From: an uncultured delta proteobacterium
GTDB lineage: Bacteria > Bdellovibrionota_C > UBA2361 > CAIXSY01
Length of the DNA: 38,819 bases
Assembly: GCA_903922175.1 (NCBI GenBank)
Contig: CAIXSY010000338.1
Span: 1-38,819, forward strand
Reading direction: 5' to 3'
Below are positions 6,120-32,341 of the stretch, in pieces (the stretch's first letter is position 1; each line of letters begins with the position of its first letter). The notes below the pieces were generated by a model, which did not search any database, was not told the DNA's origin, and worked only from the letters and a program-made list of their open reading frames with translations. A program made the position numbers and the translations under genes.

Positions 6120-6139
6120 GTTCTTGGTCTTCATTAATA

Positions 6140-6310
6140 GTAACTGCTCGCCCCTAATCGGCTAACGCTGACGTCAAACGTCTTACGCCGGACGTAAAAC
6201 GTCGACGTTGAACGTCCGGCGTTTGACCTTAGACGTCAGCGTCATCGGTTCTGAGAAAGGGCATTTTTCTGGAGTTACTTGCATAGTTTACGAAGGGAGC
6301 GAGTAGTTAC
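6140..6310. mobile_element. MITE family A, copy 1 (171 bp, perfect 8-bp target duplication)
   Basis: The left end is GTAACTGCTCGCCCC and the right end GGGAGCGAGTAGTTAC, an imperfect terminal inverted repeat. The element is flanked by the perfect direct repeat CATTAATA (6132-6139 and 6311-6318), direct evidence of insertion by transposition. The interior is a large palindrome with arms CGCTGACGTC/GACGTCAGCG and ACGCCGGACGT/ACGTCCGGCGT, so ACGTC is iterated on both strands. It has no open reading frame. Two more copies are at 10080 and 17278. It sits between the convergent SCP2 and sensor-kinase genes. Confidence 0.9.
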
Positions 6311-6391
6311 CATTAATATAAAGATTAAGAGAAAGGGAACAGGGAATAGAGTGCTCGCTCTCTGCATGAGCGGCAGCACTCAGCTCCAGCA

Positions 6392-7393
6392 CTACCTCGG
6401 CAGCTCAACCACAAACTCTGTGCCTCGTGCTTCGCTGCTGCTGACGTTAATCGAGCCCCCGACACCGCACACGATCTGCTTGACGATATACAGCCCCAGG
6501 CCTGAGCCTGACGTGCCCTTGCTTGTGGCACCGCGATAACTGCGCTCAAAAAGATGTGGCAGATCGAGCGTGGGGATGACGGGGGCGCTGTTACACACCC
6601 GCAGCACTCCTCGATCCTCCCTCTGCTCGGTGGAGATCTCGATCTTACCGACGTGCGGGGTATACTTAAGCGCGTTCGACAATAAATTCGATATAATACG
6701 GTCGAGATAGATGCTTTCGACGCTGACCATTACCGGCAGGAGAGAGAGACTGAGCGTCAACGGAGCGGTGCGACCGGTATCCCGCCATGATGTCTGAACG
6801 ACCATATCCACAACGACATTGAGATCAGTCAGGGCAGATGTCGTGTGTACAATCCCCGACTGTAACCAAGCCAGCTGCTGGTAGTTCTTTACCAGATCGA
6901 TGGCGCGAAGAATTATGTCGCGCGTATGCTCCAAAATGTGCCGCTGAGAGTCATCAATCCCGTGCCCTTTGGGCGTATCGATCAGGACGTCAACATAGCC
7001 CAAGATGGCACCAAGAGGATTTTTAAGGTCGTGCGCGGCGGTAGCTAGAAACTCCTCACGCTGTTCTAGGCGTCTCGCCTGAGATGGCTGTGATTTAAGA
7101 CATATAAGGAAGTTCGTCCCCTCGGGGGCGCCACTACCAACCTCGAGCAATATTGCAGCTTGGGGGATACTCTGCCCCGAGGGGAGCTTGATACTAAACT
7201 CGCGCCCCGAATAGGGGCCGCTAGCTAAGAGTGTGCGCACATCAAACTCAGCTAGAATTGAAGAAAGATGCTCGAGGTTTCGTCCAAAACGTCCAACGGT
7301 CGCCTGATTATGCCAAAGGATCTTGCCATGATCATCGATCAACAAGAGTGGATCTTCGGCCGCTCCAAGAATATGAGATAAGTTCTGGTCCAT
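6392..7393 (-). CDS. PAS-domain sensor histidine kinase (cytoplasmic, orphan)
   Basis: A 333-aa sensor kinase without membrane segments. Residues 1 to about 105 resemble a PAS sensor domain (LLLIDDHGKILWHNQAT). The H-box is AAHDLKNPLGAILGYVDVLI with His121 as the expected phosphorylation site. The ATPase domain has the N-box NLLSNALKYTP and the G2-box GSGLGLYIV. The G1-box reads VCNSAPVIP instead of the canonical DxGxG, so its usual Asp is replaced by Asn; related N-S-x-P variants occur in other kinases, and activity is uncertain. An F-box-like LFERSYRG is present. No response regulator gene is adjacent. The ATG at 7393 has no Shine-Dalgarno. Signal and partner are unknown. Confidence 0.85.
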   Translation of the reverse strand: MDQNLSHILGAAEDPLLLIDDHGKILWHNQATVGRFGRNLEHLSSILAEFDVRTLLASGPYSGREFSIKLPSGQSIPQAAILLEVGSGAPEGTNFLICLKSQPSQARRLEQREEFLATAAHDLKNPLGAILGYVDVLIDTPKGHGIDDSQRHILEHTRDIILRAIDLVKNYQQLAWLQSGIVHTTSALTDLNVVVDMVVQTSWRDTGRTAPLTLSLSLLPVMVSVESIYLDRIISNLLSNALKYTPHVGKIEISTEQREDRGVLRVCNSAPVIPTLDLPHLFERSYRGATSKGTSGSGLGLYIVKQIVCGVGGSINVSSSEARGTEFVVELPR

Positions 7394-7434
7394 TACCAGG
7401 GAGGATACTAAGGCTACGTCAATAAATAAAGTAG

Positions 7435-7680
7435 GTAACTGCCCGATACCCCCGGGGCGACCAGTGCACCTGCGCGTGCACAGCCTGTCTCGCCGTTGCC
7501 GTTTCTGGCACCTCTAAGTTGCTTGCCTGCAAGCGAAGGCGGATAAACGTTCCCCTGCCCGAAAATATTGGGGAACGGGAACGTTTACATGACGTGCAGA
7601 TGCACGAGAAAACTCTTCACCGGGATTCTATGAGCTATAACCCCGCTGTAGCACTTCCGGCTAAAGCCGAAGGTTTACAG
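7435..7680. repeat. Hairpin-rich spacer with a family B-like terminus
   Basis: The 380-bp gap between the sensor kinase and the aminotransferase gene holds a B-like left end at 7435 (GTAACTGCCCGATACCCCCG) without a matching right end. A long imperfect hairpin at about 7543-7588 has TAAACGTTCCC/GGGAACGTTTA arms. A third hairpin at 7646-7680 has CTGTA/TACAG outer and CCGGCT/AGCCG inner arms. The listed ORF 7519-7749 runs through the hairpins and has no family signature. Confidence 0.55.
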
Positions 7681-7773
7681 CCTGTAAGTTGGAACAATCA
7701 AAGAGCACAGGTACTCTTCTTTTTCCTTCGCTCCCTTTCCATTAGCTAAATAAATAATTATAGTTGCAACATT

Positions 7774-8913
7774 ATGGAGTTCGGCTCACAGCATATCTGG
7801 ATGAAAGAGGACCCGCTCGACGAACTGCGCGCTGAGCGCGGGGCGCTTGTCGCCGCTGGGCGCACGTTTATCGACCTCTCGATGATCAACTCCGACCTGC
7901 CTCCGCCTCGCTTGCTTTTGGACCGACTAATGGAAGCCAGCGCAAAGAGTGACAATCATCGCTATGCTGTTTCTCGCGGGGTACGAAAGCTGCGCGAAGG
8001 TTTCGCCACAAAATACCGTAACCGCTTCGGAGTTAATCTCGATCCTGAGGGTGAGGTCTGTGTCACGATGGGCACTAAGGACGCCCTATCAAACGCGCTA
8101 CAGGTACTTTGCGCACCCGGTGATGGGGTGCTCTTAGGAATGCCGACCTATCCGGCGCACCTATCGGCGGTACGCCTGGCGCGACTAACCCCGAGTTTTT
8201 TTCTGCTGCAACAGAACGAAGAGGCGATGTTACAGGATATCGTACAATCGTTGCGCAAGGGGACGATTAAGCTCGTATTACTCAACTTTCCCAACAACCC
8301 GACGGGCATCTCGGTGTCGATGCAATTCTACAAGGAGCTATTGAAGCTAACGTCAGCCGAGGGGGTCTTTGTTATTAACGACTTCGCTTACGGCGAGATG
8401 AGCTTTTCGGGTAACCCACCGAGTATTTTAGCCGCAAGCACTACGCGCGTTCTTGTGGCGGAAACATATAGCCTATCTAAGGGATATAACGTCCCAGGAT
8501 GGAGAGTAGGGGCTCTCCTCGGAAGCCACGAAGCGATACGCAACGTGGCTCGTCTCAAGGCCTTCATCGATTATGGGCTTTTTTTACCGATTCAGTATGC
8601 CGCGGCGGCTGCGCTTGGCGCCACCGAGGACTTAACTGGTCCAACCGTGCGCACCTATCAGCAGCGCCTGCGCTTAGTGGTTAAGCAGCTCGTCGAGCGC
8701 GGTTACCAAGTAGAGATGCCTAGTGCGGGAGCCTCTCTCTGGATACAAATACAGGGCAGCCAGACGGCCAAGGACTATACTTTGCGGTTACTGCGCGAGC
8801 AGGGGATAATACTGATGCCGGGCGAGCTTTTTGGACGTGAGTTCTCTAACCATGTGCGCCTGGCGGTTGTTGGTAGCGAGGAACGGTTGCGCGATGTTGT
8901 GGCACGCATGTGA
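7774..8913 (+). CDS. PLP-dependent class I/II aminotransferase (AlaC-like)
   Basis: A fold-type I aminotransferase of 379 aa that moves an amino group between an amino acid and a 2-oxo acid through pyridoxal phosphate in the cytosol. The order of motifs is typical: NHRYAVSRGVRKLREG near the N-terminus, VTMGTKDALSNAL for the phosphate cradle, NFPNNPTG, the INDFAYGEM segment with the Asp/Tyr that contact PLP, and the Schiff-base lysine in AETYSLSKGYNVPGWRVG. Closest in style to alanine or LL-diaminopimelate aminotransferases; the expected GNPD substrate segment reads MINSDLPPP, so specificity is uncertain. The start has no Shine-Dalgarno; a codon at 7801 is an alternative. A TPR gene follows after 26 bp and is probably co-transcribed. 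Confidence 0.88.
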   Translation: MEFGSQHIWMKEDPLDELRAERGALVAAGRTFIDLSMINSDLPPPRLLLDRLMEASAKSDNHRYAVSRGVRKLREGFATKYRNRFGVNLDPEGEVCVTMGTKDALSNALQVLCAPGDGVLLGMPTYPAHLSAVRLARLTPSFFLLQQNEEAMLQDIVQSLRKGTIKLVLLNFPNNPTGISVSMQFYKELLKLTSAEGVFVINDFAYGEMSFSGNPPSILAASTTRVLVAETYSLSKGYNVPGWRVGALLGSHEAIRNVARLKAFIDYGLFLPIQYAAAAALGATEDLTGPTVRTYQQRLRLVVKQLVERGYQVEMPSAGASLWIQIQGSQTAKDYTLRLLREQGIILMPGELFGREFSNHVRLAVVGSEERLRDVVARM

Positions 8914-8939
8914 TCCTGATTTCTGGTGGGTAAAGAGTT

Positions 8940-10079
8940 ATGAAACAGCAGCTATTTTTCTGGGCAACGATCGTCACAAGTGGAGGTTTGTGCCTAGCGG
9001 CACTGGCTGAAGATGCCACGGTCTCTGCGTCTTGTACTGAGGCCGCCAAAAAATTAGCGCAGGGTGCGCAGTTGGGCGATGGCTCCCCGGCCGAGGAGAC
9101 GTTTTACCGCGATGCAGCCACGGACTGTCCCGCTATGCCCGACGCGCATCATAACCTAGGAGTTCTTCTTCTAAAGCAAAAGAAGCTAGATCTGGCAGAA
9201 GCTGAATTTACCAAAGCACTTTCGATTAAAGAATCTGCCGATTCACGTTTAGCCTTGGCCTCAGCTCTTGTTGAGCTACAGAGATACGGCGAAGCTGAGG
9301 CCGCCTACCAAAAGGTTATCGAAAAAGAGCCTAAGAATGCACGTGCTTTTATTGGGCTAGGGGTTCTTTATGAACGTCGCAAGAACAGCGAGCGTGCGGT
9401 GGAGGTTCTGCATAAGGCCACCGCGCTCGATCCAGACAGTGAGCTTGCTTTTTTTAACCTAGGTGCCGTAGAGGAGCGTTCTGGGCAGCTCGAGGCGGCA
9501 CTCGCCGCCTATGAGCGCGCCTGGGAGATCAACCCGAAAAATATCGAGACCGGCCTTTTTCTTGGGCTTCTCTATGTCAAAATGGGAAAGTTCGACGAAG
9601 CTGAGCACGTCCTGGCTCAGGCTCTCTTGATAAAGCCGGAGGATGTAGAGCTACAGCGCGCGATGGGTGTTGTTTATCAGCAGCAGGGCGACCTGGATAA
9701 AGCTGAGCTGGCACTACGCAAGGCGGTAACGCTTGCCCCGCAGGATGTGTTTTCGCAGATCGACCTCGGATTGGTGCTTATCGCCAAGAAGCAGGAGGGG
9801 CTAGCAGAGGAGTCGCTTAAAAAGGCGGTTGCCCTTGCTCCACGAAATGCCCGCGCCCTAAGCGCCTTGGGCTGGGCTCAGCTCGCTCTGGGCAAATACA
9901 ACGAGGCCGAGGCCTCGCTTAAGCTCGCCGTTGAGCTGGACAGCAATGAGGCCAGTGCACATAACAATCTCGGAGTACTCTACCAGCGCAGCGGGAGAAG
10001 CGAAGAGGCACAGAGCGAATTTGCGGCGGCTCTTAAGGTTGACCCTGGGCTGGACGAGGCCAAGAAGAATAGCCGCTAG
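8940..10079 (+). CDS. Exported tetratricopeptide-repeat protein
   Basis: A 379-aa protein with an N-terminal signal peptide (hydrophobic FFWATIVTSGGLCLAALA, likely cut after LAALA) and a Cys soon after (SASC). From residue 60 to the end it is made of roughly nine 34-residue TPR units with the usual W/L-G-Y-A-A-P positions, for example AHHNLGVLLLKQKKLDLAEA and the terminal ASAHNNLGVLYQRSGRSEEA. TPR arrays are protein-protein scaffolds; in the periplasm they commonly serve envelope biogenesis or export complexes. The partner cannot be read from the sequence. It lies 26 bp after the aminotransferase gene. A family A MITE starts at the very next base after the stop codon; the repeat-flanking duplication includes the stop. 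Confidence 0.85.
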   Translation: MKQQLFFWATIVTSGGLCLAALAEDATVSASCTEAAKKLAQGAQLGDGSPAEETFYRDAATDCPAMPDAHHNLGVLLLKQKKLDLAEAEFTKALSIKESADSRLALASALVELQRYGEAEAAYQKVIEKEPKNARAFIGLGVLYERRKNSERAVEVLHKATALDPDSELAFFNLGAVEERSGQLEAALAAYERAWEINPKNIETGLFLGLLYVKMGKFDEAEHVLAQALLIKPEDVELQRAMGVVYQQQGDLDKAELALRKAVTLAPQDVFSQIDLGLVLIAKKQEGLAEESLKKAVALAPRNARALSALGWAQLALGKYNEAEASLKLAVELDSNEASAHNNLGVLYQRSGRSEEAQSEFAAALKVDPGLDEAKKNSR

Positions 10080-10236
10080 GTAACTGCTCGCCCCTCATCG
10101 GCTAACGCTGACGTCAAACGTCTTACGCCGGACGGAAAACGTCGACGTTAGACCTTAGACGTCAGCGTCATCGGTTCTAGAAATGGTCATTTTGTTAGGA
10201 ATATACGCACAGCTTGACGAAGGGGCGAGTGGTTGC
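10080..10236. mobile_element. MITE family A, copy 2 (157 bp)
   Basis: The left end GTAACTGCTCGCCCC starts at the base following the TPR gene stop codon and the right end is GGGGCGAGTGGTTGC. The flanks GCCGCTAG (10072-10079) and GCCCTTAG (10237-10244) match at 6 of 8 positions, an eroded target duplication. Compared with copies 1 and 3 it lacks one ACGTCCGGCGT arm, which accounts for the shorter length. The insertion kept the host stop codon intact. Confidence 0.85.
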
Positions 10237-10310
10237 GCCCTTAGATTCTTTTAAGGCCGTCGGATGATGCAGTTAGCAGAAAGCTGATATCAGATCTCGG
10301 ATAGCAGAAG

Positions 10311-10454
10311 GCAACCGTTCACACCCGCTGTCATCCCGAGGAGCTCTACCCTTTTTGAGGTGATAGCTGATTCGATGCAGAGGCGCAGGAAAAGGGTAGA
10401 GCTCCTCGGGATGACATTTGGCGCACCTTGACAGCAGGGGGCGTGAGCGGTTAC
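10311..10454. mobile_element. MITE family A2 (144 bp) carrying a perfect 26-bp hairpin
   Basis: The ends are GCAACCGTTCACACCCGCTG and, at the right, GCGTGAGCGGTTAC, i.e. GTAACCGCTCACGC when complemented, closely related to family A termini. Inside, 10330-10355 and 10390-10415 form a perfect 26-bp inverted repeat (GTCATCCCGAGGAG... ending CTACCCTTTT). The flanking octamers AGCAGAAG and CACAGAAG share their last six bases, an eroded 8-bp duplication. Confidence 0.75.
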
Positions 10455-10475
10455 CACAGAAGGCTGAAAACGAAA

Positions 10476-10509
10476 AACCCGGTGTAAGCTTTGTGGCTTA
10501 CACCGGGTT
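10476..10509 (-). terminator. Rho-independent terminator of the small Cys protein gene
   Basis: A perfect 14-bp stem (AACCCGGTGTAAGC with its complement) and a 6-base loop are followed on the minus strand by TTTTTCGTTTTC counted from the stem end. It lies about 50 bp after the stop of the 39-aa gene at 10561-10680, in the right orientation. Confidence 0.75.
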
Positions 10510-10560
10510 CCCTTAGAACAAAGCAGTTTCCGTTAACGAAAACTGCTACCCAGAACCAAG

Positions 10561-10680
10561 TTACTTCTTGGTCGATGGCTGAGTCTGTGGCTTAGCCTGC
10601 TGGGGCTGTCCCGTCTGTCCCGGCTTAGCAGTCTGAGGGTTTGTCGGTTTACCTGAATTACCGCAGCATCCTTCACCCAT
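10561..10680 (-). CDS. 39-residue protein with N-terminal CC motif and Pro/Gln-rich tail
   Basis: This gene is below the ORF-track cut-off. It encodes 39 residues starting MGEGCCGNSGKPT and continuing as a Gln/Pro/Thr/Lys-rich, probably disordered tail that ends STKK. A good Shine-Dalgarno (GGAGAT, about 7 bases before the ATG) and a strong terminator 50 bp downstream support a real transcription unit. The adjacent cysteines near the N-terminus could bind a metal, form a disulphide or be modified, but I do not recognise a family. The overlapping ORF at 10533-10766 in another frame is a shadow. Function unknown. Confidence 0.65.
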   Translation of the reverse strand: MGEGCCGNSGKPTNPQTAKPGQTGQPQQAKPQTQPSTKK

Positions 10681-10906
10681 AAAATATCTCCAATAGTTTT
10701 TAATTTAAAATCTCTCCACACCGACCTGGAAAATCCAGATACAAACGGGAAAGTCATCGTGAGCAAGATCGTACTTCAGCCGAAATAACCCCGTAAAGTG
10801 CGATTAGAGAGCGAAAATGTAGCGGCGTCGGCAATTTAGGCGGACTGCAGAAAGTGTCCAAAAAAATGACACCTAGTAAAATTCACCTTGACAACTTTCT
10901 AGAACG

Positions 10907-12139
10907 CTATTTGCTAAGCGCCTGCGCCAATCGCTTGGGGCTGATAAGTGAAAGTAGGCGGTCATAGGTCAGGTTTAGGCGCTTAGTAAAGACCTCAAAT
11001 GTATATCTCTCCTCGGCTAGACGCTTGGCATTTGCTCCAAGGACTCGCCGCTTCTCTGGGTCCGCAATAAGAGAGAGGATGCCCTTAGCAAAATCGTCCG
11101 CCACGGGGTCGCGCAGTTCGGCTACGCTTGCGCTGAGAACCTGCGTATTGGTTTCAAGCTTAGTCGCAATGATCGCCCGGCCGGAATGTAAGTAGGAGTA
11201 AACCTTCATCGGTGTGTTGTTGCCCTGAGTACGTGGTGAAGCAAGGATATCAGCCTGCATGATGTAGCTGCTAATCTCGCTGATTGGGCGGGCACCGATG
11301 AAGTGGCACTGTGCAGCGATGCCCAGCTTGCTGCAAACGTCGCGGTAGGAAGCAACATGTTCGGGGGCACCTCCGACAACCACCAAATGAGCCTGCGGGC
11401 AGTCGCCTGCGACCTTATCAAAGCTCTCGACTAGTAGGTCAATTCCTTGATATGCCTCAAGATTACCGATGTACATGATGACAACGTCAGTGCTCTTGGC
11501 ACCGATCTCTTGGCGCAAAAGTGCCGCCGAATTACTCGTTTCCTCTGTCAACAAAGAAACGTCGCGCAGGACCGAGACCTCGCGCGACCCATAGTGCACA
11601 GCTATCTTAGCCAGCGAATCGCATACCGGAACAACCGCCAAACTGCACCGAACTGCCACTCTCTCGAACCAGCGCAATGCTGGTTCGACCATCCGCAGCC
11701 AGGCCCACTTCTCCACTGCCTGTCCGGCAAGATTCGAGTCCATATCGTAGATATAGGGGATACCGAAGATGCTTTTTACTAGTAGAGCAATAAACACCGC
11801 TTCCTCGACCGCATGCAGCATAACATAGGGCGCTTTGCGATTGCGCCAGACAAGCTGCATCACCTTCACCAGAAAAATGAGGTCGCAGAGGACTTTCTGA
11901 AGTGAGATACCGGGGCCGATATTACGCAGAATTCGTGGGGCAGAGATGCGATAGTGGTTCACACCGGCGATGTCGATAGGGCGCCCTTCGTGGTAGGTCA
12001 AGAGATCTATCTCTAGCTTCTTTGCGGGATCGGTCTCGGCGTTACTACGTGAAGCCAACACCCGCAGCGCAAGCTTTACCGCGATCGGCGTGCCGCGCTC
12101 GACAAAAAATGGCTGTGGGGCTAAAAATAGAATCTTCAT
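10907..12139 (-). CDS. GT4-family glycosyltransferase
   Basis: A 410-aa GT-B-fold, retaining glycosyltransferase likely acting at the cytoplasmic face of the membrane in surface polysaccharide synthesis. The N-terminal domain starts MKILFLAPQPFFVERGTPIA, typical of GT4 proteins with a glycine-rich acceptor loop. The C-terminal domain shows IMYIGNLEAYQGIDLLVESF and the donor-binding region ASPRTQGNNTPMKVYSYLHS, where the usual E-x7-E is partly replaced (TPMKVYSYLHSG), as in a known GT4 subgroup. Sugar and acceptor cannot be deduced. It is the only transferase of this type in the window and is transcribed away from the SDR/membrane-protein pair at 12.4-14.9 kb, with repeats in between. Confidence 0.87.
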   Translation of the reverse strand: MKILFLAPQPFFVERGTPIAVKLALRVLASRSNAETDPAKKLEIDLLTYHEGRPIDIAGVNHYRISAPRILRNIGPGISLQKVLCDLIFLVKVMQLVWRNRKAPYVMLHAVEEAVFIALLVKSIFGIPYIYDMDSNLAGQAVEKWAWLRMVEPALRWFERVAVRCSLAVVPVCDSLAKIAVHYGSREVSVLRDVSLLTEETSNSAALLRQEIGAKSTDVVIMYIGNLEAYQGIDLLVESFDKVAGDCPQAHLVVVGGAPEHVASYRDVCSKLGIAAQCHFIGARPISEISSYIMQADILASPRTQGNNTPMKVYSYLHSGRAIIATKLETNTQVLSASVAELRDPVADDFAKGILSLIADPEKRRVLGANAKRLAEERYTFEVFTKRLNLTYDRLLSLISPKRLAQALSK

Positions 12140-12247
12140 ACGGCGTTAGGGCGGAAGTATACCCGTTCTGCCGCCCTTGGGAAGGGTTTGAGCTTGAGAT
12201 AGTAGGCAGGTTGTGCAGAGCAGTTACACTAAGCTAAAACGATAACC

Positions 12248-12313
12248 GTTCGAAAAGGGGGACGCTTCCCTTTTTCCTCGGTTCGAAAAGGGGGACGCTT
12301 CCCTTTTTCCTCG
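12248..12313. repeat. 33-bp tandem direct repeat, two identical copies
   Basis: Two perfect, abutting copies (12248-12280 and 12281-12313) each contain AAAAGGG...CCCTTTTT arms around a GGGACGCT core. This core is shared with the REP units flanking the transposase at 24556, so these may be REPs of a related RAYT. A small GAGGGA/TCCCTC stem follows at 12315-12329. The repeat lies between the divergent GT4 and SDR genes, 53 bp upstream of the SDR start. Confidence 0.75.
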
Positions 12314-12366
12314 CGAGGGAACCTCCCTCAACTCGATCTGGAAGTAATTCATTCATAGGCAGTCTT

Positions 12367-14891: not shown

Positions 14892-14901
14892 TGGCGGACG
14901 A

Positions 14902-17277: not shown

Positions 17278-17449
17278 GTAACTGCTCGCCCCTAATCGGC
17301 TAACGCTGACGTCAAACGTCATACGCCGGACGTAAAGCGTCGACGTCAGACGTCCGGCGTTAGACCTAAGACGTCAGCGTCATCGGTTCTCAACAAGGGT
17401 CATTTTGTTAAGGCTATATGCACAGCTTGACGAGGGGGCGCGTAGTTAC
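17278..17449. mobile_element. MITE family A, copy 3 (172 bp, perfect 8-bp target duplication)
   Basis: The ends are GTAACTGCTCGCCCC and GGGGCGCGTAGTTAC, flanked by the perfect direct repeat AAAAGGAG (17270-17277 and 17450-17457). The interior palindrome of ACGTC-containing arms is complete and nearly identical to copy 1. The element sits 48 bp upstream of the SGNH-hydrolase start, in the divergent promoter region shared with the methyltransferase gene, so it may affect expression of either. Confidence 0.92.
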
Positions 17450-17532: not shown

Positions 17533-18258
17533 ATGGATTTTTACCACGAAGACTGCGATCTGCACTCAGCCAGCGCCGAGTACGCCAAGCGATTTTCCGG
17601 ACCTGCCGGTCGCTGGATGCTTGCGCTTCAATCACGTATCGTACTGCGCATGCTCAAAGAGCACCCAACGGTCGCGGTTCTTGATGTTGGAGGTGGCCAC
17701 GGGCAGATCTCCGTTCCGGCGGCGCAGCAGGGCTATAAAATTACCTGCCTGGGAAGCTCAGCGGAGGCCTTTAACCAGGTTCAGGCAGTAGCTGGGGGAG
17801 AGGGGGTTTTAACCAGGGTAGGGGAGCTTCTCGATATTCCGTTCGAAGCCAAGAGCTTTGAGGTCGTCACCTGTTTTAGAATCTTGGCCCACTGTCGCGG
17901 CTGGCAGCGGCTTGTGGGCGAGATGTGCCGCGTCTCGAGATCTGACGTCATCGTCGACTACCCGCTTAGTCGCAGCGTCAATGCGCTCACCCCACTTCTT
18001 TTCGGCGCAAAAAAGGGGATCGAGAAGAACACAAGAGACTACGCCCTTTTCTCAGAAGCTGAGGTCGATCATCAGTTTCGTGAACATGGATTCGAGCGGG
18101 CTTCGGCGACAAAGCAGTTCTTCTTCCCGATGGTAGTTCATCGCATGCTGGGCGCACCAGCGCTCTCCTCGCTTATCGAGATAATCCCTCGTGTGCTAGG
18201 ACTTACCAGCCTTCTGGGCTCGCCTATTATCGCTTGCTATCGAAAGAGAGCGGGGTAG
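17533..18258 (+). CDS. SAM-dependent class I methyltransferase
   Basis: A 241-aa methyltransferase of the Methyltransf_11 type. Motif I is VAVLDVGGGHGQISVPAAQQG, the post-I acidic position is replaced by LGSSAEAF, and motif IV-VI regions follow (FEVVTCFRILAHCRGWQRLVGEMCRV), matching the ubiquinone/glycan-methyltransferase layout. The acceptor is unknown; the surrounding glycan and lipid genes suggest a surface or lipid substrate. The ATG at 17533 is preferred, although AAGGGA lies 10 bases before a TTG at 17515 that would add six residues. Upstream is a family A MITE. Six bases after the stop begins the CCGTCCGCAAAAAGTCTTG repeat. Confidence 0.8.
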   Translation: MDFYHEDCDLHSASAEYAKRFSGPAGRWMLALQSRIVLRMLKEHPTVAVLDVGGGHGQISVPAAQQGYKITCLGSSAEAFNQVQAVAGGEGVLTRVGELLDIPFEAKSFEVVTCFRILAHCRGWQRLVGEMCRVSRSDVIVDYPLSRSVNALTPLLFGAKKGIEKNTRDYALFSEAEVDHQFREHGFERASATKQFFFPMVVHRMLGAPALSSLIEIIPRVLGLTSLLGSPIIACYRKRAG

Positions 18259-18263
18259 GTATA

Positions 18264-18472
18264 CCGTCCGCAAAAAGTCTTGGCGGACCTCCGAATATTT
18301 TGCGGACGAGACGTCCGCGCTCCCAGGTGCCCACACTTATTGAGCAATTACCTCCCTATTTTTTCTTATGCCAGGCTGCTTCCGTGCGTGCTTGGCTTAC
18401 GACTGTCTGTACAGTGTTGGAGTGAAAGGTTCTCGCACCGAAGGTGGGCTAGGAGCGCGCGAAGCGCGCTCC
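18264..18472. repeat. Mixed repeat tract: CCGTCCGC repeat, lone B end and GC hairpin
   Basis: The gap 18259-18582 contains CCGTCCGCAAAAAGTCTTG (18264-18282, also at 14855), which pairs with TTTTGCGGAC downstream. It also contains a lone family B terminus (CCCACACTTATTGAGCAATT, ending at 18351), and the tail plus hairpin unit at 18430-18472 (GGAGCGCGC/GCGCGCTCC) in the inverse orientation of 14902-14946. Beyond 18480 are fragments of repeat G. I see no gene. Confidence 0.65.
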
Positions 18473-20964: not shown

Positions 20965-21016
20965 GTAATTGCTCAAAAACCCCGGAGAGATCTTACCCTA
21001 GCCTTGGTTGTGGTTA
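20965..21016. repeat. Left half of a family B element
   Basis: GTAATTGCTCAAAAACCCCG starts at 20965 and continues with the CTAGCCTTGGTTGTGGTT block seen in the complete copies at 1529 and 32102. The right half cannot be recognised between here and the FrhB-like gene stop at 21116, so it is eroded or deleted. Confidence 0.6.
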
Positions 21017-21115
21017 GGCGTGAGCTCCGTCGAACGATCCTGGTCCCAAATCCTGGTCGTTGTCAAATGCCTTAGCCGCTCTGCTCCCGAAGCTTTAAAA
21101 TGGGGCACTCTCCCG

Positions 21116-22664: not shown

Positions 22665-22820
22665 GTAACTGGTCGGCACTATGTTACTCAGGCACGTTGT
22701 AGCAGTGGAGGTGCACAAAGGCTGCAATTAACGCGGAGGGGACAGAGTCAACGGTGGCAGAGGAGGGGAAATTCCCCCTCCTCTGCCACGGAGATAGCCT
22801 AAACTTTGCTGACTAGTTAC
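22665..22820. mobile_element. MITE family C, copy 1 (156 bp)
   Basis: The ends are GTAACTGGTCGGCA and TGCTGACTAGTTAC. The interior holds a 15-bp-stem perfect hairpin at 22754-22789 (GTGGCAGAGGAGGGG and complement). CTTTTTA occurs directly before the left end and two bases after the right end, compatible with an 8-bp target duplication blurred by a one-base slip. It shares only its ends, not its interior, with the copy at 29185. Confidence 0.75.
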
Positions 22821-22882
22821 AACTTTTTAGTTGCTTCCGCTAGGCGGCGCTGTGTAAAAGCTGCTATGCTGTGGCGGTGATT

Positions 22883-24289: not shown

Positions 24290-24313
24290 TATTTGTTATA
24301 TGAGTGATGAAAC

Positions 24314-24493: not shown

Positions 24494-24513
24494 GGACGCT
24501 ACCGACTTATTTG
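24424..24513. repeat. Upstream REP array, three 29-bp units
   Basis: Units at 24424-24452, 24454-24482 and 24485-24513 are identical over 29 bp (GAAAAGTAGGGACGCTACCG... ending TTATTTG) and separated by one or two bases. GTAG/CTAC arms around GGACG can form a small hairpin. The units are inverted relative to those downstream of the transposase. The absence of spacers rules out CRISPR. Confidence 0.88.
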
Positions 24514-24555
24514 CATTTTTAAGCAACTTTTCACCGAAGTTACCGAAAATAGTGC

Positions 24556-25239
24556 ATGGCGCGCACTGCAAGAGTAGTTATTCCCGGTATTCTTCATCAC
24601 ATTACTCAACGAGGTAATAGAAGGGAGGATGTCTTCTATGATGACGAGGACAAGTTTTTCTTCATGGACCGGCTTCTCTCATACTCAGCTCGAGCTGGGC
24701 TGTTGTTAGCTTCTCACTGCCTCATGACTAATCACACACACCTACTTGCAGTGCCGGAAGAGAAGGATAGCCTTGAGCGCACCTTTAAGCCCCTTCATTT
24801 GGTTTACTCACAATATCTTAACAAGAGATTCAATCGAACGGGGATAAACTGGCAAGGGCGCTATTTCTCAAGCCCGCTGGATGACGAGCACTCTTGGTAC
24901 GCATTTCAGTACGTCGCGCTAAATCCAGTGAAGGCCGACATAGTAAGCAATTTTCAGGAATACTCATGGTCAAGTGCTCGAGATCTGCTCTCCAATAGGC
25001 CCCAGTCCGCGCTCACCGCCGGTCCCAAATGGCTCTCCATGGGGCATGATGCCCTTGCGCAACTTCTAGACCACGACACGTATCAGCCAAACGAAGTAGC
25101 TTTCGAGCACCTAGAAAAAATGGGTGCAAGAAACCTTCCAGTCGGTTCGGATGATTTTATCGCGCGACTGGAGAAAGAAACCGGACGCACGCTTCGGCCT
25201 AAGCCAATAGGTCGTCCGAGAAAGGTGGAAAGTAGGTAG
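24556..25239 (+). CDS. REP-associated tyrosine transposase (RAYT, Y1/IS200-like HUH)
   Basis: A 227-aa Y1-type HUH transposase of the REP-associated group. The start MARTARVVIPGILHHITQRGNRR is characteristic. The HUH metal site is in LMTNHTHLLA (His60, His62) and the catalytic Tyr119 in AFQYVALNPVKADIV. RAYTs recognise and mobilise short palindromic REP sequences as single strands; the flanking arrays here (three units upstream, four downstream, inverted) are the expected substrates. The last residues (RPRKVESR) and the stop codon are part of the first downstream repeat unit, and the DNA of this gene tail is duplicated once downstream. The gene sits inside a destroyed FMN-reductase gene. I see no frameshift, so it may be active. 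Confidence 0.93.
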   Translation: MARTARVVIPGILHHITQRGNRREDVFYDDEDKFFFMDRLLSYSARAGLLLASHCLMTNHTHLLAVPEEKDSLERTFKPLHLVYSQYLNKRFNRTGINWQGRYFSSPLDDEHSWYAFQYVALNPVKADIVSNFQEYSWSSARDLLSNRPQSALTAGPKWLSMGHDALAQLLDHDTYQPNEVAFEHLEKMGARNLPVGSDDFIARLEKETGRTLRPKPIGRPRKVESR

Positions 25240-25392
25240 CGTCCCTAATTTTCCCCAATTTTCCCTAATAGGTCGTCCGAGAAAGGTGGAAAGTAGGTAG
25301 CGTCCCTAATTTTCCCTCGAGAAAGGTGGAAAGTAGGTAGCGTCCCTAATTTTCCAAGAAAGGTGGAAAGTAGGTAGCGTCCCTAATTTTCC
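25227..25392. repeat. Downstream REP array, four 28-bp units
   Basis: Units GGAAAGTAGGTAGCGTCCCT... occur at 25227-25254, 25288-25315, 25328-25355 and 25365-25392. The first two also share about 20 preceding bases (AATAGGTCGTCCGAGAAAGG) that are the end of the transposase coding sequence. The core GGTAGCGTCCC is the complement of the upstream GGGACGCTACC. The transposase stop codon lies in unit 1. Confidence 0.88.
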
Positions 25393-25416
25393 AGCAGCGC
25401 GCGCACGCGCGCTGCT
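25393..25416. repeat. GC-rich hairpin overlapping the hydrolase stop codon
   Basis: A perfect 11-bp stem (AGCAGCGCGCG/CGCGCGCTGCT) with a two-base centre. It belongs to the same group as hairpins at 14902, 18452, 31776 and 37844. The TAG stop of the minus-strand hydrolase gene lies at its right edge. It lacks a T-run, so it is not an obvious terminator. Confidence 0.7.
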
Positions 25417-26206: not shown

Positions 26207-26388
26207 AACAGTGGGTTATAAGGCACCCTAGCGCACGGGTCAACGATCCCGTCAAGATATGAATGATTCTTCAAATATATTATTCCTAGTGGTGTAACCG
26301 CCTGCGGAGTTTTATATTGCCAACTAATTCCGATTGCTGGCAATCTGAAGATAGGATTGGTTTTTTTGATTTTATAGCGAAGGTCGTT

Positions 26389-27552: not shown

Positions 27553-27553
27553 C

Positions 27554-28978
27554 GTGGCACAGGTTGCCTGTCCTCGGATCTTGATCTCTGGCATTGGCCC
27601 TGGCGTAGGAAAGTCTCTTATTTCAATCGGCCTCGTCCATGAGCTGCGCAAACGCTCGATAAGCGTCTCCTGTTGCGTGGTTGGTCCCAACTTAGTGCAG
27701 GCCTCGATCCTCAAGCGTCTTACGGGGCGCTACGTGCGTTGCCTTGACGGCTGCATTCTCTCCTCTAGCCAGAACCTAAACTCGCTTTCCCAGGCGGCAA
27801 GTGGTGCCGACATTGTCGTCATCGAGGGCAATGCCGGGCTATTCGACGGCTACTCGGCGGGCACGCTGCGCGGCTCCGATGCGGAGATTGCCGGAATCTC
27901 CCGATCTCCGGTGATCCTCGTGGCTGATGTTTCGAACTTCGGAAATAGCCTCATCGCCCTGATCAAGGGGTACGCTGCTTTTGCTAAGAACTTTACGGTT
28001 GCGGGCAGTATCCTTAACCGCACTGCAACCAAGAACGGGATCGACGACGAAGGGCGCCCCGACCTCCACGATCGTGAGTTTTTCGAGGTGGCGATGCAGG
28101 CTTTCGGCATGCCCAAGCTCATCGGCGCATTGCCCGTGCTCCCCTTTGAATGTGACGTGCCTCGCTATTGCCTCTCCGAGCGGAAAAATCTCTCCGCGAT
28201 CAGCCGCCAGTTCTTCTACCGTGTCGGGGAGGTAGTCAATCAATGCATCGATGTCTCGGCCATACTTAGCCAAGCATCAACCCCGCGCCCAGTCGAGAGC
28301 GGCGAGAGCATGGAGCTCCCCAATCGCCGCCGCACGCGAATAGCGATCGCCGACGATTCCTGTTTTAATCTCTGTTTTCAGGATAACCTCGACCTCCTGC
28401 GCCACTTCGGTGCCGAGCTCGTTTCATTCTCGCCGCTTGCCGATGCCAAGCTGCCACCGAGGATCGGCGCGGTATACCTGACGGGCGCCTACCTCTCTGA
28501 GTATGCAGAGATCCTGGCACAGAACCAGAGTTTACGTAATTCCATCCAAGAGTTCGTTCAGCAGGGTGGCGTACTTTATGCGGAGAGTGGGGGAGCGGCA
28601 TTCCTCTGTGATCAGTACGAATTCCCCGAGGACGACCGCTCCTATCCCGGCGTAGGAGTCTTGCCCGGCATCGCCACCTTCAAACCCGGACGCTTCTCCT
28701 ATCAGGAGGTTGTCAGTGTCGACGACTCGATCTTCGGTGACTCGGGCGTGATCGCCAAAGGGGTCTCCACGGGGGAGTGGGAATACAGCGAGGGGCGCAA
28801 AATCGTTAGGGTTTTTCGCTGTTCCGTAGATGGCAGGAGAACACACCAAGAGGGCTACTCGCCCAGCGCACAGTCAGTGGCAACCTTCAGCTTTCTGCAC
28901 TTTGCTTCTAATCCGCAGCTGGCGCGCTCGATCGTCGAAGCGGCAGAGGTTGTTTCTGGCTCTTCCGAGTCTCCGTAA
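27554..28978 (+). CDS. CbiA/CobB-like P-loop protein with a degenerate glutaminase domain
   Basis: A 474-aa homologue of cobyrinic acid a,c-diamide synthase. The N-terminal dethiobiotin-synthetase-like domain has the P-loop SGIGPGVGKS (residues 12-21), the VVGPNLVQASILKRLTGR segment (where CbiA has GPDYIDP), and VVIEGNAGLFDG. The C-terminal GATase1-like domain has IGAVYLTGAYLSEYAEILA, but the nucleophile region reads YAESGG with Ser345 where CbiA has Cys. Without Cys, ammonia release from glutamine is not expected, and no cobalamin genes are nearby. I infer an ATP-binding protein with a changed role or an ammonia-dependent amidase. The GTG start has AGGAAG 5 bases upstream and lies one base after the methyltransferase-like stop, a tight operon. 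Confidence 0.8.
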   Translation: MAQVACPRILISGIGPGVGKSLISIGLVHELRKRSISVSCCVVGPNLVQASILKRLTGRYVRCLDGCILSSSQNLNSLSQAASGADIVVIEGNAGLFDGYSAGTLRGSDAEIAGISRSPVILVADVSNFGNSLIALIKGYAAFAKNFTVAGSILNRTATKNGIDDEGRPDLHDREFFEVAMQAFGMPKLIGALPVLPFECDVPRYCLSERKNLSAISRQFFYRVGEVVNQCIDVSAILSQASTPRPVESGESMELPNRRRTRIAIADDSCFNLCFQDNLDLLRHFGAELVSFSPLADAKLPPRIGAVYLTGAYLSEYAEILAQNQSLRNSIQEFVQQGGVLYAESGGAAFLCDQYEFPEDDRSYPGVGVLPGIATFKPGRFSYQEVVSVDDSIFGDSGVIAKGVSTGEWEYSEGRKIVRVFRCSVDGRRTHQEGYSPSAQSVATFSFLHFASNPQLARSIVEAAEVVSGSSESP

Positions 28979-29067
28979 TCAGCTGAAATTTCTCACATAA
29001 CACACGAGCCGAGAAGTCGCGCTAACAATTCATGCGGATTCCTTGATGCTCTTTGCGCTGAAAACAT

Positions 29068-29104
29068 CCTACGCTGTTGCTTTTTTTAAAAAAACTGGCG
29101 TAGG
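29068..29104. terminator. Hairpin after the CbiA-like gene, possible terminator
   Basis: CCTACGC (29068-29074) pairs with GCGTAGG (29098-29104), and an inner TTTTTTT/AAAAAAA pairs as well. It lies 90 bp after the CbiA-like stop. The T/A tracts are inside the stem, which is unusual for a standard terminator, so an alternative is another palindromic element. Confidence 0.4.
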
Positions 29105-29112
29105 TTACCAAT

Positions 29113-29520
29113 CGGCTGATAAGGCCCTATTAATTAATAAAGGTGCCAATTTGCATCTCATCTTCAGACCATCTTTGAATTTTTGTAACTGGTCAGCACC
29201 TTGCCATTGCATACAACATGTTTCACACGGAGATCCACCGAGGTCTCACGGAGTTCCACAGGAGGCTGCGTGGTGGGACCCAGCACTACCCCCTCCGTGT
29301 AACTCCGTGAGATCTCGGTGGATCTCCGTGTGAAACATGGCGATTATTGCGCATCTTCCAATGGCGCTGACTAGATACGAATTTTTTTGAGTGGGAAAAA
29401 TCCTCGATATAGTGATACTATGTCTGCGGTTTTTCCCGCTCAAAGAAAATTCAAATTTGACCTAAATCTGAGCGCAACTTGACACCTTTATTAATTAACA
29501 GGGCCTAAGGCTTATAGCCG
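29113..29520. repeat. Palindromic element E, interrupted by a MITE
   Basis: The arms start CGGCT(g)ATAAGGCCCTATT at 29113 and mirror a block ending at 29520; TTAATTAATAAAGGTG is perfectly conserved in both. After removing the family C insertion at 29185-29378 plus one octamer, the two arms pair for about 90 bp each, meeting at ATAGTGATACTAT near 29410. The 5' gap region 28979-29112 and this element contain no credible ORF. The right end overlaps the stop codon of a possible 38-aa gene. Confidence 0.78.
29185..29378. mobile_element. MITE family C, copy 2 (194 bp, perfect 8-bp target duplication)
   Basis: The ends are GTAACTGGTCAGCAC and GCGCTGACTAGATAC, flanked by perfect GAATTTTT octamers (29177-29184 and 29379-29386). 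The interior is dominated by a 39-bp-arm hairpin (29218-29256 with 29301-29339, one mismatch) built of CCGTGAGAYCTCGG-like sequence. It is inserted in the left arm of palindrome E, whose pairing is restored when the element and one octamer are removed. Confidence 0.9.
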
Positions 29521-29628
29521 GCTCGATAGAATCATCCCAAGTGCACACAGTAATAACATCGCGAATAGCACAAGTCCGCTAAAGGACAGCGCAAAGGCGA
29601 CAAGATCTGCAGTCGGTGATTGTTGCAT
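29512..29628 (-). CDS. Possible 38-residue single-pass membrane protein
   Basis: An ORF below the track cut-off, divergent from hflX. It encodes MQQSPTADLVAFALSFSG followed by a strongly hydrophobic stretch (LVLFAMLLLCALGMIL) and SSRL. One transmembrane helix of about 22 residues fills most of the protein. A TATAGT hexamer about 20 bases upstream of the ATG could be a -10 box, but I see no clear Shine-Dalgarno. The last codons and the TAA lie in the end of palindromic element E. It could be chance coding in a T-rich region; no family is recognised. Confidence 0.35.
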   Translation of the reverse strand: MQQSPTADLVAFALSFSGLVLFAMLLLCALGMILSSRL

Positions 29629-29698
29629 AAACTTAAGCTTGCGATACTATACCATTCTGGTTTGCTAGGCGTAAGATATTCAATTGTTATAGGAGATC

Positions 29699-31396
29699 GT
29701 GGCGCAACATTTAACTGGTAACACCAAGGGCCTGGCCCCTTCAGAGATTCGCCGGATTGAGCGGTTGTTCGAACGTAAGGTCGATAAGGATGAGCTTGTG
29801 CCATTCGACCTAGCGCGCGAGCTATTCCAAACGGCAGCCAGCTTGCGCCGTCGCCTCGGTGTGATTATCTCCCGGGATGGCAAGGTAGTTGAGGTTGCTG
29901 TCGGCACCAAAGACATTCTTTATTTACCAGACCTAGGGCGATATCGCTTGGGCAAGGGGCGTCTGCGGCGGCTGAGACTCGTTTTTAGTGATTTAAGTAA
30001 TCGCGGCGACGTCGCCCAGATCCCGCCAGATATCTACACAGACCTAGAAAGGCTACGCCTCGATATGGTGGTAAGCGTTAAGGAGGTCCAGAATCGCGTT
30101 CAGGTGTCCTACGCCCACATCATAAAGCTTGAAGCCCAAGGTCTCGCCACTACCCACACCGAGCGAGTAAAAGACCTCTCGCTTTTCAGTCTCGACTTTT
30201 CGACCTTCATGGAGGAGCTCGAGGCTGGGTTGGATAGCAGCGGAACAGCCGAGCACATTCAGCAGGGCAAGGACCGCGCAGTTCTCGTTGGCGTTTATGG
30301 CGGTGGGCGAGACGCGGCAGCCTCGATGGCTGAGCTAGACGAACTCTGTCGCACCGCCGGCGTCCAGGTCGTTGATCGAGTGATTCAGCACCGCGCTCCC
30401 GACCCGAAAACGTTGCTCGGTAAGGGCAAGCTTGAGGAGGTCGTCCTGCGATGCCTGCGCCTTGGAGCTGATATTTTGATATTCGACGAGCAGCTTAAGC
30501 CTGGACAATGGCGTATCATTACCAACTCGACCGAACTCAAGGTGCTCGACCGCAGCATGGTCATCCTCGACATCTTTGCGCAGCGTGCCACAAGTAGTGA
30601 TGGCCGCCTGCAGGTAGAATTGGCACAGCTTAAGTATAACCTGCCGCGTCTCGTTGAGAAGGACACGGGGCTGTCTCGACTAAGCGGAGGGATCGGCGGA
30701 CGCGGCCCGGGAGAGACGAAGCTCGAGGTTGGCCGTCGCCACATCCGGGATCGCATCTCCGATCTCGAGCACCAGATCGGCAAACTTAGCCAACAGCGAT
30801 CGCTGCGCCGCAAACAGCGCGAGGAGAGCGAACTTCCCCAGGTCTCCATCCTCGGTTACACCAACGTCGGAAAGTCCACTCTGTTTAACGCACTAACGCA
30901 CAGCACGGTAATCGTCGAGAACAAGCTTTTTGCCACCCTCGACCCGGCCAGCCGACGTCTGGTGATTCCTCCACCGCAGGCAGATGGCGGCGTCGATAAT
31001 AAGGTCGTGGTGCTTTCAGATACGGTGGGATTTATTCGAGATCTCCCCGAGGAGCTGCTCAATGCATTTCGGGCAACGCTCGAAGAGCTGCGGCGCGCGG
31101 CGCTTCTCGTCCATGTTCTCGATGCCTCTGACCCTCAGATCGCGGAGAGGAAAAAAGCCGTTGATAAGGTAATTGAGGAGATGGGCATAAGCGCAACTCC
31201 ATGCCTGGTTGTTATTAATAAAATAGATCGGATTTCGGCCGAACAGGCATCTCTCCTGGCTCGTGAGTATGGGGCGATCGCTATCTCTGCAACCAATAAA
31301 AGCGGATTCGCGGATCTTAAGCGTAGTATCTTAGTTGAACTTAAACGTTCGGAGCATGAGCGTGCGACCAGTGCCGGAGGCGATGTCGATGTTTGA
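29699..31396 (+). CDS. hflX: GTPase HflX
   Basis: A ribosome-associated GTPase that splits or rescues stalled 70S ribosomes under stress. The G domain carries G1 GYTNVGKSTLFN from residue 386, G3 DTVGFIRDLPEEL, and G4 VINKIDRI. Upstream is the HflX N-terminal domain (VLVGVYGGGRD; VDRVIQHRAPDPKTLLGKGKLEEV) and the glycine-rich loop LSGGIGGRGPGETKLE. At 565 aa it exceeds the common 420-430; the extra N-terminal 190 residues (VIISRDGKVVEVAVGTK; LGRYRLGKGRLRRLRL) are seen in deltaproteobacterial homologues. The GTG start at 29699 has AGGAG three bases before it. It overlaps the following thioesterase gene by 8 bp, so the two are probably coupled. Confidence 0.95.
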   Translation: MAQHLTGNTKGLAPSEIRRIERLFERKVDKDELVPFDLARELFQTAASLRRRLGVIISRDGKVVEVAVGTKDILYLPDLGRYRLGKGRLRRLRLVFSDLSNRGDVAQIPPDIYTDLERLRLDMVVSVKEVQNRVQVSYAHIIKLEAQGLATTHTERVKDLSLFSLDFSTFMEELEAGLDSSGTAEHIQQGKDRAVLVGVYGGGRDAAASMAELDELCRTAGVQVVDRVIQHRAPDPKTLLGKGKLEEVVLRCLRLGADILIFDEQLKPGQWRIITNSTELKVLDRSMVILDIFAQRATSSDGRLQVELAQLKYNLPRLVEKDTGLSRLSGGIGGRGPGETKLEVGRRHIRDRISDLEHQIGKLSQQRSLRRKQREESELPQVSILGYTNVGKSTLFNALTHSTVIVENKLFATLDPASRRLVIPPPQADGGVDNKVVVLSDTVGFIRDLPEELLNAFRATLEELRRAALLVHVLDASDPQIAERKKAVDKVIEEMGISATPCLVVINKIDRISAEQASLLAREYGAIAISATNKSGFADLKRSILVELKRSEHERATSAGGDVDV

Positions 31397-31835
31397 GTGT
31401 GAGGTCGTCGCCAAAGAGGAGATCGCCGACAACCTATATCAGCACATTCACCATGCCGACATTCTGCGCATGTTTGAGCAGGGCAGGTGCGCATTTCTTC
31501 AAACGATCGGTTTTTCCAATGAAAGCTTTATTGCTCGGGGTATCTTTCCTGTGGTGGCCTCGGTCAACATCCGCTACCTACGCGAGGTGCGACCAGGGAC
31601 GTATGTGGTGACCTGTGAAAAGGGGAGGTGCGTCGGAAAGTCGCTTTTCGTCCATCAGCGGTTATTTAACAAGCGTCGAAAGATTGTCGCTGATGCGGAG
31701 GTAGAGTGCGTCCTGATGGATGGCGCCTCACGCCGCGGGGTCACACCCGAGGCGGCATTTGAAAGGGCGTTTACGAGCAGCGCGCTCGGTCTACCCTTTT
31801 TTTGCACCATGTTACAGCTATTGATGACTCCATAA
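31389..31835 (+). CDS. Acyl-CoA thioesterase (4HBT hot-dog fold)
   Basis: A 148-aa hot-dog thioesterase of the YbgC/4-hydroxybenzoyl-CoA type. The N-terminal region has DNLYQHIHHADILRMFEQGRCAFL, where the D-x5-H-H/N segment and following helix form the active site, and VNIRYLREVRPGTYVVTCEK follows on the sheet. I start at the ATG at 31389 because GGAGG lies 8 bases upstream; the ATG at 31383 is only 2 bases from it. The last 19 residues, from SSALGLPFF onward, are translated from a palindromic repeat (31776-31859), and the stop codon is in its right arm. The native C-terminus has been replaced but the catalytic core is intact. Confidence 0.82.
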   Translation: MFECEVVAKEEIADNLYQHIHHADILRMFEQGRCAFLQTIGFSNESFIARGIFPVVASVNIRYLREVRPGTYVVTCEKGRCVGKSLFVHQRLFNKRRKIVADAEVECVLMDGASRRGVTPEAAFERAFTSSALGLPFFCTMLQLLMTP

Positions 31836-31859
31836 AAAGGGTAGACCAAGCGCGCTGCT
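31776..31859. repeat. 84-bp palindrome with 26-bp arms inside the thioesterase 3' end
   Basis: The arms 31776-31801 and 31834-31859 pair with one mismatch; they start AGCAGCGCGCT and end CTACCCTTTTT, combining the GC-hairpin motif with the CTACCCTTTT seen at 10346-10355. The common tail CTAGCCCACCTTCGGTGCGA follows to 31880. On the plus strand the right arm supplies the TAA of the thioesterase gene. Confidence 0.8.
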
Positions 31860-31925
31860 AGCCCACCTTCGGTGCGAGAATTTTAGACCAAACACTGGGC
31901 ACTGAGTGGGTAGGTAGAACCAAGT

Positions 31926-31975
31926 GTACTGCCCAATAACCCCGGGTAGCTTAATAATTCGCGGTCGTGCTCGTA
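31926..31975. repeat. Left half of a family B element
   Basis: GTACTGCCCAATAACCCCGG is followed by TTAATAATTCGCGGTCGTGC, the same arm as in the B elements at 4107 and 34881. A second terminus-like GTAACTGCTTGATA at 31989 is mirrored 30 bp later by CAGTTAC. No right half is visible before element D. Confidence 0.6.
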
Positions 31976-32017
31976 ACGTTCACGGGTCGTAACTGCTTGA
32001 TAGCACAGCAGAAGAAT

Positions 32018-32341
32018 ACAGTTACGCGAAGGGCAGGAAAAAGGACACGAAAACCACGAAATAAATTGCTGAGTATTCACCTGGAGTTAGCTCCAGGTAA
32101 AGTAATTGCTCATTAACCACGGGTGAAAGTGCCTAGATCCTAGTCCTGGTCATGGTTCTGGTCTTAAGTCATAGTCGTGTTCTTGGCCGCAATCATTGAC
32201 TAATTGACCAGGATTTAGGACCAGGACCATAACCAAGACTAAGACAAGATTTCCCCGGGGTTATTGAGCAGATACCAGGTGAATACTCAGCAAATACTTT
32301 TGCGTCCTTCGCGTCCTGTTTCGTGGCTTTCGTGTAACTGA
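32018..32341. repeat. Palindromic element D, interrupted by a family B MITE
   Basis: The left arm (32018-32087; ACAGTTACGCGAAGGGC...GAGTATTCACCTGG) and right arm (32276-32341; ...TTTCGTGTAACTGA) pair along most of their length. Without the insertion, the centre would be a perfect 16-bp stem of the type GAGTATTCACCTGGAG with a TTAG loop. No ORF is present in 31881-32583 apart from an unsupported 63-codon frame. Confidence 0.78.
32102..32275. mobile_element. MITE family B (174 bp) with near-perfect 8-bp target duplication
   Basis: The ends are GTAATTGCTCATTAACCACG and CCCCGGGGTTATTGAGCAGA(TAC). Internal arms CTAGTCCTGGTCATGGTT and ACCATAACCAAGACTAAG pair. The flanking octamers CAGGTAAA (32094-32101) and CAGGTGAA (32276-32283) differ at one base. 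The element lies in the right half of palindrome D, and removing it with one octamer restores the palindrome. Confidence 0.88.

What the first reader, a model, noticed from the sequence alone, without database searches (positions are those of the whole stretch)
6132..32283. A superfamily of palindromic MITEs with GTAAYYGSTC ends and 8-bp target duplications
Four families with different bodies (A at 6140, 10080, 17278; A2 at 10311; B at 32102 and others; C at 22665, 29185) share the terminal motif GTAA-Y-Y-G-S-T-C. Flanking octamers are perfect for 6140 (CATTAATA), 17278 (AAAAGGAG) and 29185 (GAATTTTT), 7 of 8 for 32102, and 6 of 8 for 10080 and 10311. That shows they moved by cut-and-paste or replicative transposition with an 8-bp staggered cut. 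None encodes a protein and no matching transposase is in the window. GTAA termini plus 8-bp duplications are known features of the IS66 family, so a shared IS66-like enzyme acting in trans is my inference. The density, at least a dozen units or fragments in 39 kb, is extreme for a bacterial chromosome.
Basis: partly seen in the sequence, partly recalled or inferred. Interest (0 to 1): 0.85.

Follow-up and report, generated by a model that had tools for sequence, protein, structure and literature searches.

The report
IS66-type MITE swarm without its driver
This bacterial genome is full of hundreds of short, gene-less jumping DNA pieces whose ends match one branch of the IS66 transposons; their insertion footprints are shown here, but the enzyme that moved them is missing from the assembled genome.

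Summary
The window carries several families of short palindromic non-coding elements (A, A2, B, C, plus a family E found here) with related GTAA... ends and 8-bp target duplications. In 1.23 Mb of the same genome, 28 inverted end pairs have matching octamers (7 or 8 of 8) in the exact register, against 0 to 2 at any other register. Unoccupied sites with a single octamer exist inside other repeat copies for four elements, two of them in the window. B-type 22-bp ends number 519 in the genome, none in the control and none in 44 other genomes of the phylum. The only intact IS66 here has different ends, and no ISBst12-type transposase is assembled. These are new MITE families of a known kind, probably mobilised in trans by an enzyme now lost or unassembled.

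The parts
6140..6310 (+). Family A MITE, 171 bp, ends GTAACTGCTCGCCCC / GTAACTACTCGCTCC
   Evidence: TSD CATTAATA at 6132-6139 and 6311-6318, 8/8; about 39 further copies scored in own genome
10080..10236 (+). Family A MITE, starts directly after the stop codon of ORF 8940-10079
   Evidence: Profile match; octamers 6/8
10311..10454 (+). A2 element, ends GCAACCGTTC / GTAACCGCTC, long hairpin body
   Evidence: Octamers 6/8; DNA fold z -8.0
17278..17449 (+). Family A MITE
   Evidence: TSD AAAAGGAG 8/8; profile match
22665..22820 (.). Element with C-type ends GTAACTGGTC / GTAACTAGTC
   Evidence: Octamer 4/8 in register, 7/8 allowing one extra base at the right edge; the C1 profile did not match it
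29185..29378 (.). Family C MITE, near-perfect hairpin
   Evidence: TSD GAATTTTT 8/8; unoccupied site in L077, L092 and L052 at about 97% and in L141 and L048 at lower identity; DNA fold z -14.3
29122..29506 (.). Target repeat (183 bp when empty) that the C element split
   Evidence: Inverted ends at 29122 and 29506; 183-bp empty copies in L052, L077, L092
32102..32275 (.). Family B MITE, ends GTAATTGCTCATTAA / GTATCTGCTCAATAACCCCGGG
   Evidence: TSD 7/8; unoccupied site in L136, L054, L048, L039, L130
31973..32380 (.). Family E element (ends GTAACGTTCACGGG / GTAAGCGTTCACGGGG) holding the B element 32102-32275 in its centre
   Evidence: Profile match of both halves; sequence
31927..32470 (.). 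Older decayed B element into which E inserted; left and right remnants at 31928-31978 and 32370-32470
   Evidence: Profile match of remnants
1387..1713 (.). Cluster of B elements, a truncated one at 1387-1528 and a full one at 1529-1713
   Evidence: Profile matches; no clear octamer
4107..4426 (.). Nested B elements; 4107-4370 inserted in a B relative that ends at 4426
   Evidence: Octamers 7/8 for 4107-4370; weaker unoccupied match, 74%
18249..18350 (-). B-type element or fragment
   Evidence: Profile match
20965..21075 (.). B fragment
   Evidence: Profile match
34881..35077 (.). B element
   Evidence: Profile match

Best explanation
They are MITEs: short non-autonomous elements with terminal inverted repeats, moved by a DDE transposase of the ISBst12 group (single-gene branch) of the IS66 family acting in trans. 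The enzyme binds the GTAAC(T/C)G(C/G)TC-type ends and inserts the element at an 8-bp staggered cut, which host repair turns into 8-bp direct repeats. Several waves, with different bodies and slightly different inner end sequences, piled into intergenic DNA and into each other. Shown: ends, 8-bp duplications, empty sites, nesting, copy number, and full elements with the same kind of ends around a PF03050 single-gene transposase in other bacteria. Inferred: that such an enzyme was once in this genome, and that the MITEs used it.
For: Register-specific octamers, 28 pairs against 0-2. Perfect duplications only at length 8. Empty sites for window 29185, window 32102, L136:5770 and L136:6844. B ends: 519 in own genome, 0 in control and in 44 relatives. 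The B-end pattern, searched in 257 Gb of other genomes, picks out an inverted pair around a PF03050 transposase in L158; a 93% copy of that gene in the same genome keeps the same end at the same distance. Plasmid relatives: Caballeronia GTAACTTCTCAATAACYCGGGGC with TSD CATCAGCT, Allochromatium with CGATTTTT, Serratia with AACAAAAC, all 8/8. MITEs with the same ends and perfect octamers in a Klebsiella-labelled MAG and in Legionella quateirensis. ISDge4, ISBst12 group, has ends GTAACTGCTCAGCA, an 8-bp repeat and active transposition (PMC12898284), close to C (GTAACTGGTCAGCA) and A (GTAACTGCTCGCCC).
Against: No ISBst12-type transposase is found in the assembled genome. No autonomous element with exactly A or E ends was found. 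The L158 element begins at base 1 of its contig, so its own duplication cannot be read, and its transposase frame has an in-frame stop upstream. NCBIfam's IS66 model stays below its cut-off for that protein (127.8 against 180 bits), although Pfam's is passed.
Confidence: 0.87

Rival explanations
1. The resident multi-gene IS66 elements (intact on C429, decayed on C316) mobilise the MITEs in trans.
For: They are the only IS66 transposases in the assembly, and C429 made an 8-bp duplication AAGTTTCT.
Against: The C429 ends are GTGTCCTTTCGGCAAGCCTGC, unlike any MITE family here. The C316 element has a stop in its first gene and a truncated transposase, and no end resembling the MITEs was identified.
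Confidence: 0.05
2. Another IS family with 8-bp duplications (IS256, ISL3, IS1595 or ISAs1) is the driver.
For: 8-bp duplications alone do not single out IS66 (established knowledge).
Against: The end sequences match IS66/ISBst12 elements specifically; none of the named families is known for GTAAC ends (own knowledge, not tested here).
Confidence: 0.04
3. They are REP- or ERIC-like palindromes, RNA genes or terminators spread by recombination, not by transposition.
For: Bodies are strong hairpins, copies are intergenic (9 of 237 centres inside ORFs) and some follow stop codons.
Against: Octamer duplications and single-octamer empty sites; no Rfam match in the window; no excess between convergent genes, 21 of 164.
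Confidence: 0.02

Closest known systems
ISDge4, ISBst12 group of the IS66 family (Deinococcus geothermalis, PMC12898284)
   Same: Ends GTGACTACTCAGCA and GTAACTGCTCAGCA and an 8-bp direct repeat, closest to families C and A
   Different: Autonomous with a 449-aa transposase; the elements here encode nothing
Single-gene IS66-like elements found here (L158 Deltaproteobacteria MAG; L162/L163 Caballeronia; L164 Allochromatium; L165 Serratia)
   Same: Inverted ends GTAAYT(G/T)CTCA(A/T)TAA... like family B; perfect 8-bp duplications in Caballeronia, Allochromatium and Serratia
   Different: 1.7-2.0 kb with a PF03050 transposase gene; other hosts
Chunjie MITE of Geobacter, ERIC, Correia elements
   Same: Short, non-coding, hairpin-forming, intergenic, many copies
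   Different: Other ends and other parents; the 2024 review of prokaryotic MITEs has no mention of IS66 (PMC10969869)
Canonical multi-gene IS66, such as the C429 element
   Same: 8-bp duplication; PF03050 transposase
   Different: Multi-gene; ends GTGTCCTTTCGGC in this genome

Membership tests
MITE | Short, non-coding, terminal inverted repeats | tested here: met
   70-390 bp, inverted ends, no transposase ORF inside
MITE | Target site duplication of fixed length | tested here: met
   8 bp, register-specific; single-octamer empty sites
MITE | Many copies in one genome | tested here: met
   237 family stretches in 1.23 Mb; 519 B ends genome-wide
MITE | Autonomous partner in the same genome (usual, not strictly required) | tested here: inconclusive
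   No ISBst12-type transposase assembled; the draft genome breaks at repeats, so a multi-copy partner could be missing
IS66 family, ISBst12 group (as source of the mobilising enzyme) | GTAA-type termini | tested here: met
   B ends match L158 ends over 22 bp and Caballeronia ends closely
IS66 family, ISBst12 group (as source of the mobilising enzyme) | 8-bp duplication | tested here: met
IS66 family, ISBst12 group (as source of the mobilising enzyme) | Single IS66-type (PF03050) transposase gene between the ends | tested here: met
   Met in other genomes only: L158 (64.4 bits against cut-off 23.1), L162, L164, L165; absent in own genome
IS66 family, ISBst12 group (as source of the mobilising enzyme) | The enzyme moves these ends | not testable with these tools
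   Needs a mobility assay
REP/BIME elements | Palindromes without target duplications, tied to a RAYT | tested here: not met
   8-bp duplications and empty sites present; RAYT not searched

The most novel reading that the evidence does not exclude
One lost ISBst12-type transposase mobilised at least four MITE families that share only their outer 10 or so bases, so that a minimal end is enough for cross-mobilisation in the IS66 family, and the genome still carries a dormant set of substrates that any incoming ISBst12 element could move again.
Probability: 0.35. Interest if true: 0.55.

Novelty: new member of a known kind. Interest (0 to 1): 0.42.

Why it matters
IS66 transposition is poorly understood, and the papers searched here describe no MITEs of its ISBst12 branch (the 2024 review of prokaryotic MITEs does not mention IS66). 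This genome offers many natural substrates with defined ends, so the minimal end that the enzyme needs can be read from the conserved bases and tested. It also shows successive waves of MITE spread, with nested insertions that can be ordered in time, and a MITE load of about 2.6% of the sampled DNA without a visible driver.

Tried and rejected
Family A searched in plasmids: no match, and in 56 other genomes: none. Long inverted motif pairs of 450-6000 bp with matching octamers: none convincing. Resident IS66 elements as drivers: rejected on ends. The L158 transposase searched in 45 genomes of the phylum: none. In viral contigs: one relative, not used. Rfam: none. Rhizobium and Mesorhizobium relatives (L166-L168): no clean end-plus-octamer call with the script, left aside. 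Terminator role: no convergent-gene excess. Deinococcus radiodurans and Vibrio furnissii plasmid matches were fetched and not analysed for ends.

Full report
What was checked. The window is contig C338 of a 4.79 Mb, 432-contig genome. Octamers flanking 6140-6310, 17278-17449 and 29185-29378 are identical, those of 32102-32275 agree at 7 of 8, and those of 10080-10236 and 10311-10454 at 6 of 8. The element at 22665-22820 fits only if one extra base is allowed on its right side.

Is it more than chance? The exact motif GTAAYYGSTC occurs 320 and 315 times on the two strands of the genome, against 49 and 48 for the reversed control. I fetched 1,228,937 bases of the genome (with the window; total). 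The first batch of contigs was chosen partly for having motifs, so densities are slightly biased upwards. Among inverted end pairs under 450 bp in the first 0.84 Mb, six have perfect 8-bp flanks, and none are perfect at lengths 4 to 7 or 9 to 12 as exact direct repeats next to the ends. In the full sample 28 pairs agree at 7 or 8 of 8 positions in the exact register, and at most 2 at any register shifted by up to 12 bases. A search that ignored the motif, asking only for perfect 8-mers outside inverted ends, returned 26 places of which about a dozen are these elements.

Empty sites. No close relative is held: the nearest genomes are of the same order, none of 56 others carries family A and none of 44 carries B ends. 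Repeats of the same genome serve instead. Joining the flanks of the C element at 29185 gives a 183-bp repeat found unoccupied at about 97% identity in L077, L092 and L052, with a single octamer. Joining the flanks of the B element at 32102 gives the centre of family E, unoccupied in L136, L054, L048, L039 and L130. L136:5770-5917 and L136:6844-7075 also have unoccupied counterparts (183-bp copies).

Families, nesting and age. Profiles built from single elements and one round of hits find 237 stretches in the sample: 140 B, 51 A (with A2), 31 C, 12 E and 3 mixed, together 2.6% of it. B ends over 22 bp with up to one mismatch number 519 in the whole genome and 0 for the reversed pattern. Median identity to the nearest full-length copy is 82-96% by family, with one B pair at 100%, which suggests several past waves; identical copies may also have been collapsed in the assembly. 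In the window a B element sits in an E element that sits in an older B element (31927-32470). Only 9 of 237 centres fall inside ORFs although ORFs cover about 76% of the sample. The bodies form strong hairpins.

The driver. One, L158, has the end at 1-22 and, inverted, at 1792-1813. Between them lies a 435-residue reading frame that matches PF03050, the IS66 transposase (64.4 bits, cut-off 23.1); the span is too short for the usual set of further IS66 genes. A second, 93% identical copy in that genome keeps the same end at the same distance from the gene. The L158 frame appears to have an in-frame stop upstream of the 435 residues, so this copy may not be active. Relatives are common on plasmids (251 records). 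Three of them have readable ends and perfect octamers: Caballeronia 2027 bp, CATCAGCT; Allochromatium 1741 bp, CGATTTTT; Serratia 1764 bp, AACAAAAC. Their ends GTAACTTCTCA(A/T)TAA... resemble family B. The literature names the group: ISDge4 of Deinococcus geothermalis, ISBst12 group of IS66, single ORF, ends GTGACTACTCAGCA and GTAACTGCTCAGCA, 8-bp repeat CCTCGATG, seen to transpose (PMC12898284). Those ends are closest to C and A. Short elements with B-type ends and perfect octamers also occur in a Klebsiella-labelled MAG (L155:570-682, TCCTGGAT) and in Legionella quateirensis (L180:1389-1522, GAGATAAG). That the single-gene elements found here belong to the ISBst12 group is inferred from the single ORF, the PF03050 match and the ends; no tree with ISBst12 itself was built.

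What the genome itself holds. PF03050 finds only C429 and a fragment on C316, PF05717 the same two. The C429 element is 3585 bp, ends GTGTCCTTTCGGCAAGCCTGC, duplication AAGTTTCT, and lies inside a B-like palindrome. It is therefore IS66 but not the matching driver. The L158 protein and a seven-sequence profile find only the C-terminal part of C429. The matching enzyme is lost, or was not assembled or binned.

Judgement. Transposition with 8-bp duplication is shown. An ISBst12-type IS66 enzyme as mover is the best-supported inference (0.87). Whether one enzyme served all families is open. MITEs are a known kind; I found no description of MITEs from this branch in the papers searched, a limited library. 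I rate it a new member of a known kind, of moderate interest.

Noticed in passing
window 35-181 and 5942-6086: A long palindromic repeat (TCTGCTTTCTGCTGACTGCATC..., and a CTACGTAG-type stretch) occurs inverted on both sides of a 5.8 kb gene block. Similar inverted pairs 0.7-4.8 kb apart occur in L139, L112, L125 and L130.
   Followed up: no
L113:1627-5549 (C429): The intact IS66 (1781-5365) split a palindrome with ends GGTTCCTCACCA and its own octamer GGATTTTG, possibly yet another MITE family.
   Followed up: partly
L031:38-928 (C429): A 296-aa reading frame lies between the tnpB-like gene and tnpC of the resident IS66; not identified here.
   Followed up: no
L032 (C316:4070-7186): Decayed IS66 with a stop in its first gene and a truncated transposase, followed by E-type repeat sequence.
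   Followed up: partly
window 29122-29506; L052:8588-8770; L077:18117-18299; L092:3178-3360: A 183-bp palindromic repeat starting AGGCCCTATTAATTAATAAAGG; its own mobility was not established, no clear duplication seen.
   Followed up: partly
window 25206-25393: Short direct repeats AGAAAGGTGGAAAGTAGGTAGCGTCCCTAATTTTCC in four copies.
   Followed up: no
window 33392-33958: Minus-strand reading frame over a TCC/TCT/TTC-rich plus strand, which would give an acidic low-complexity protein.
   Followed up: no
contig ends of own genome, such as C23, C32, C33, C75: Contigs often end within a MITE, as expected if these repeats broke the assembly.
   Followed up: no
L180:1389-1522, L156 and L172 (Legionella quateirensis): Legionella quateirensis carries a 134-bp element with similar ends and a perfect octamer, plus further single ends.
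   Followed up: partly
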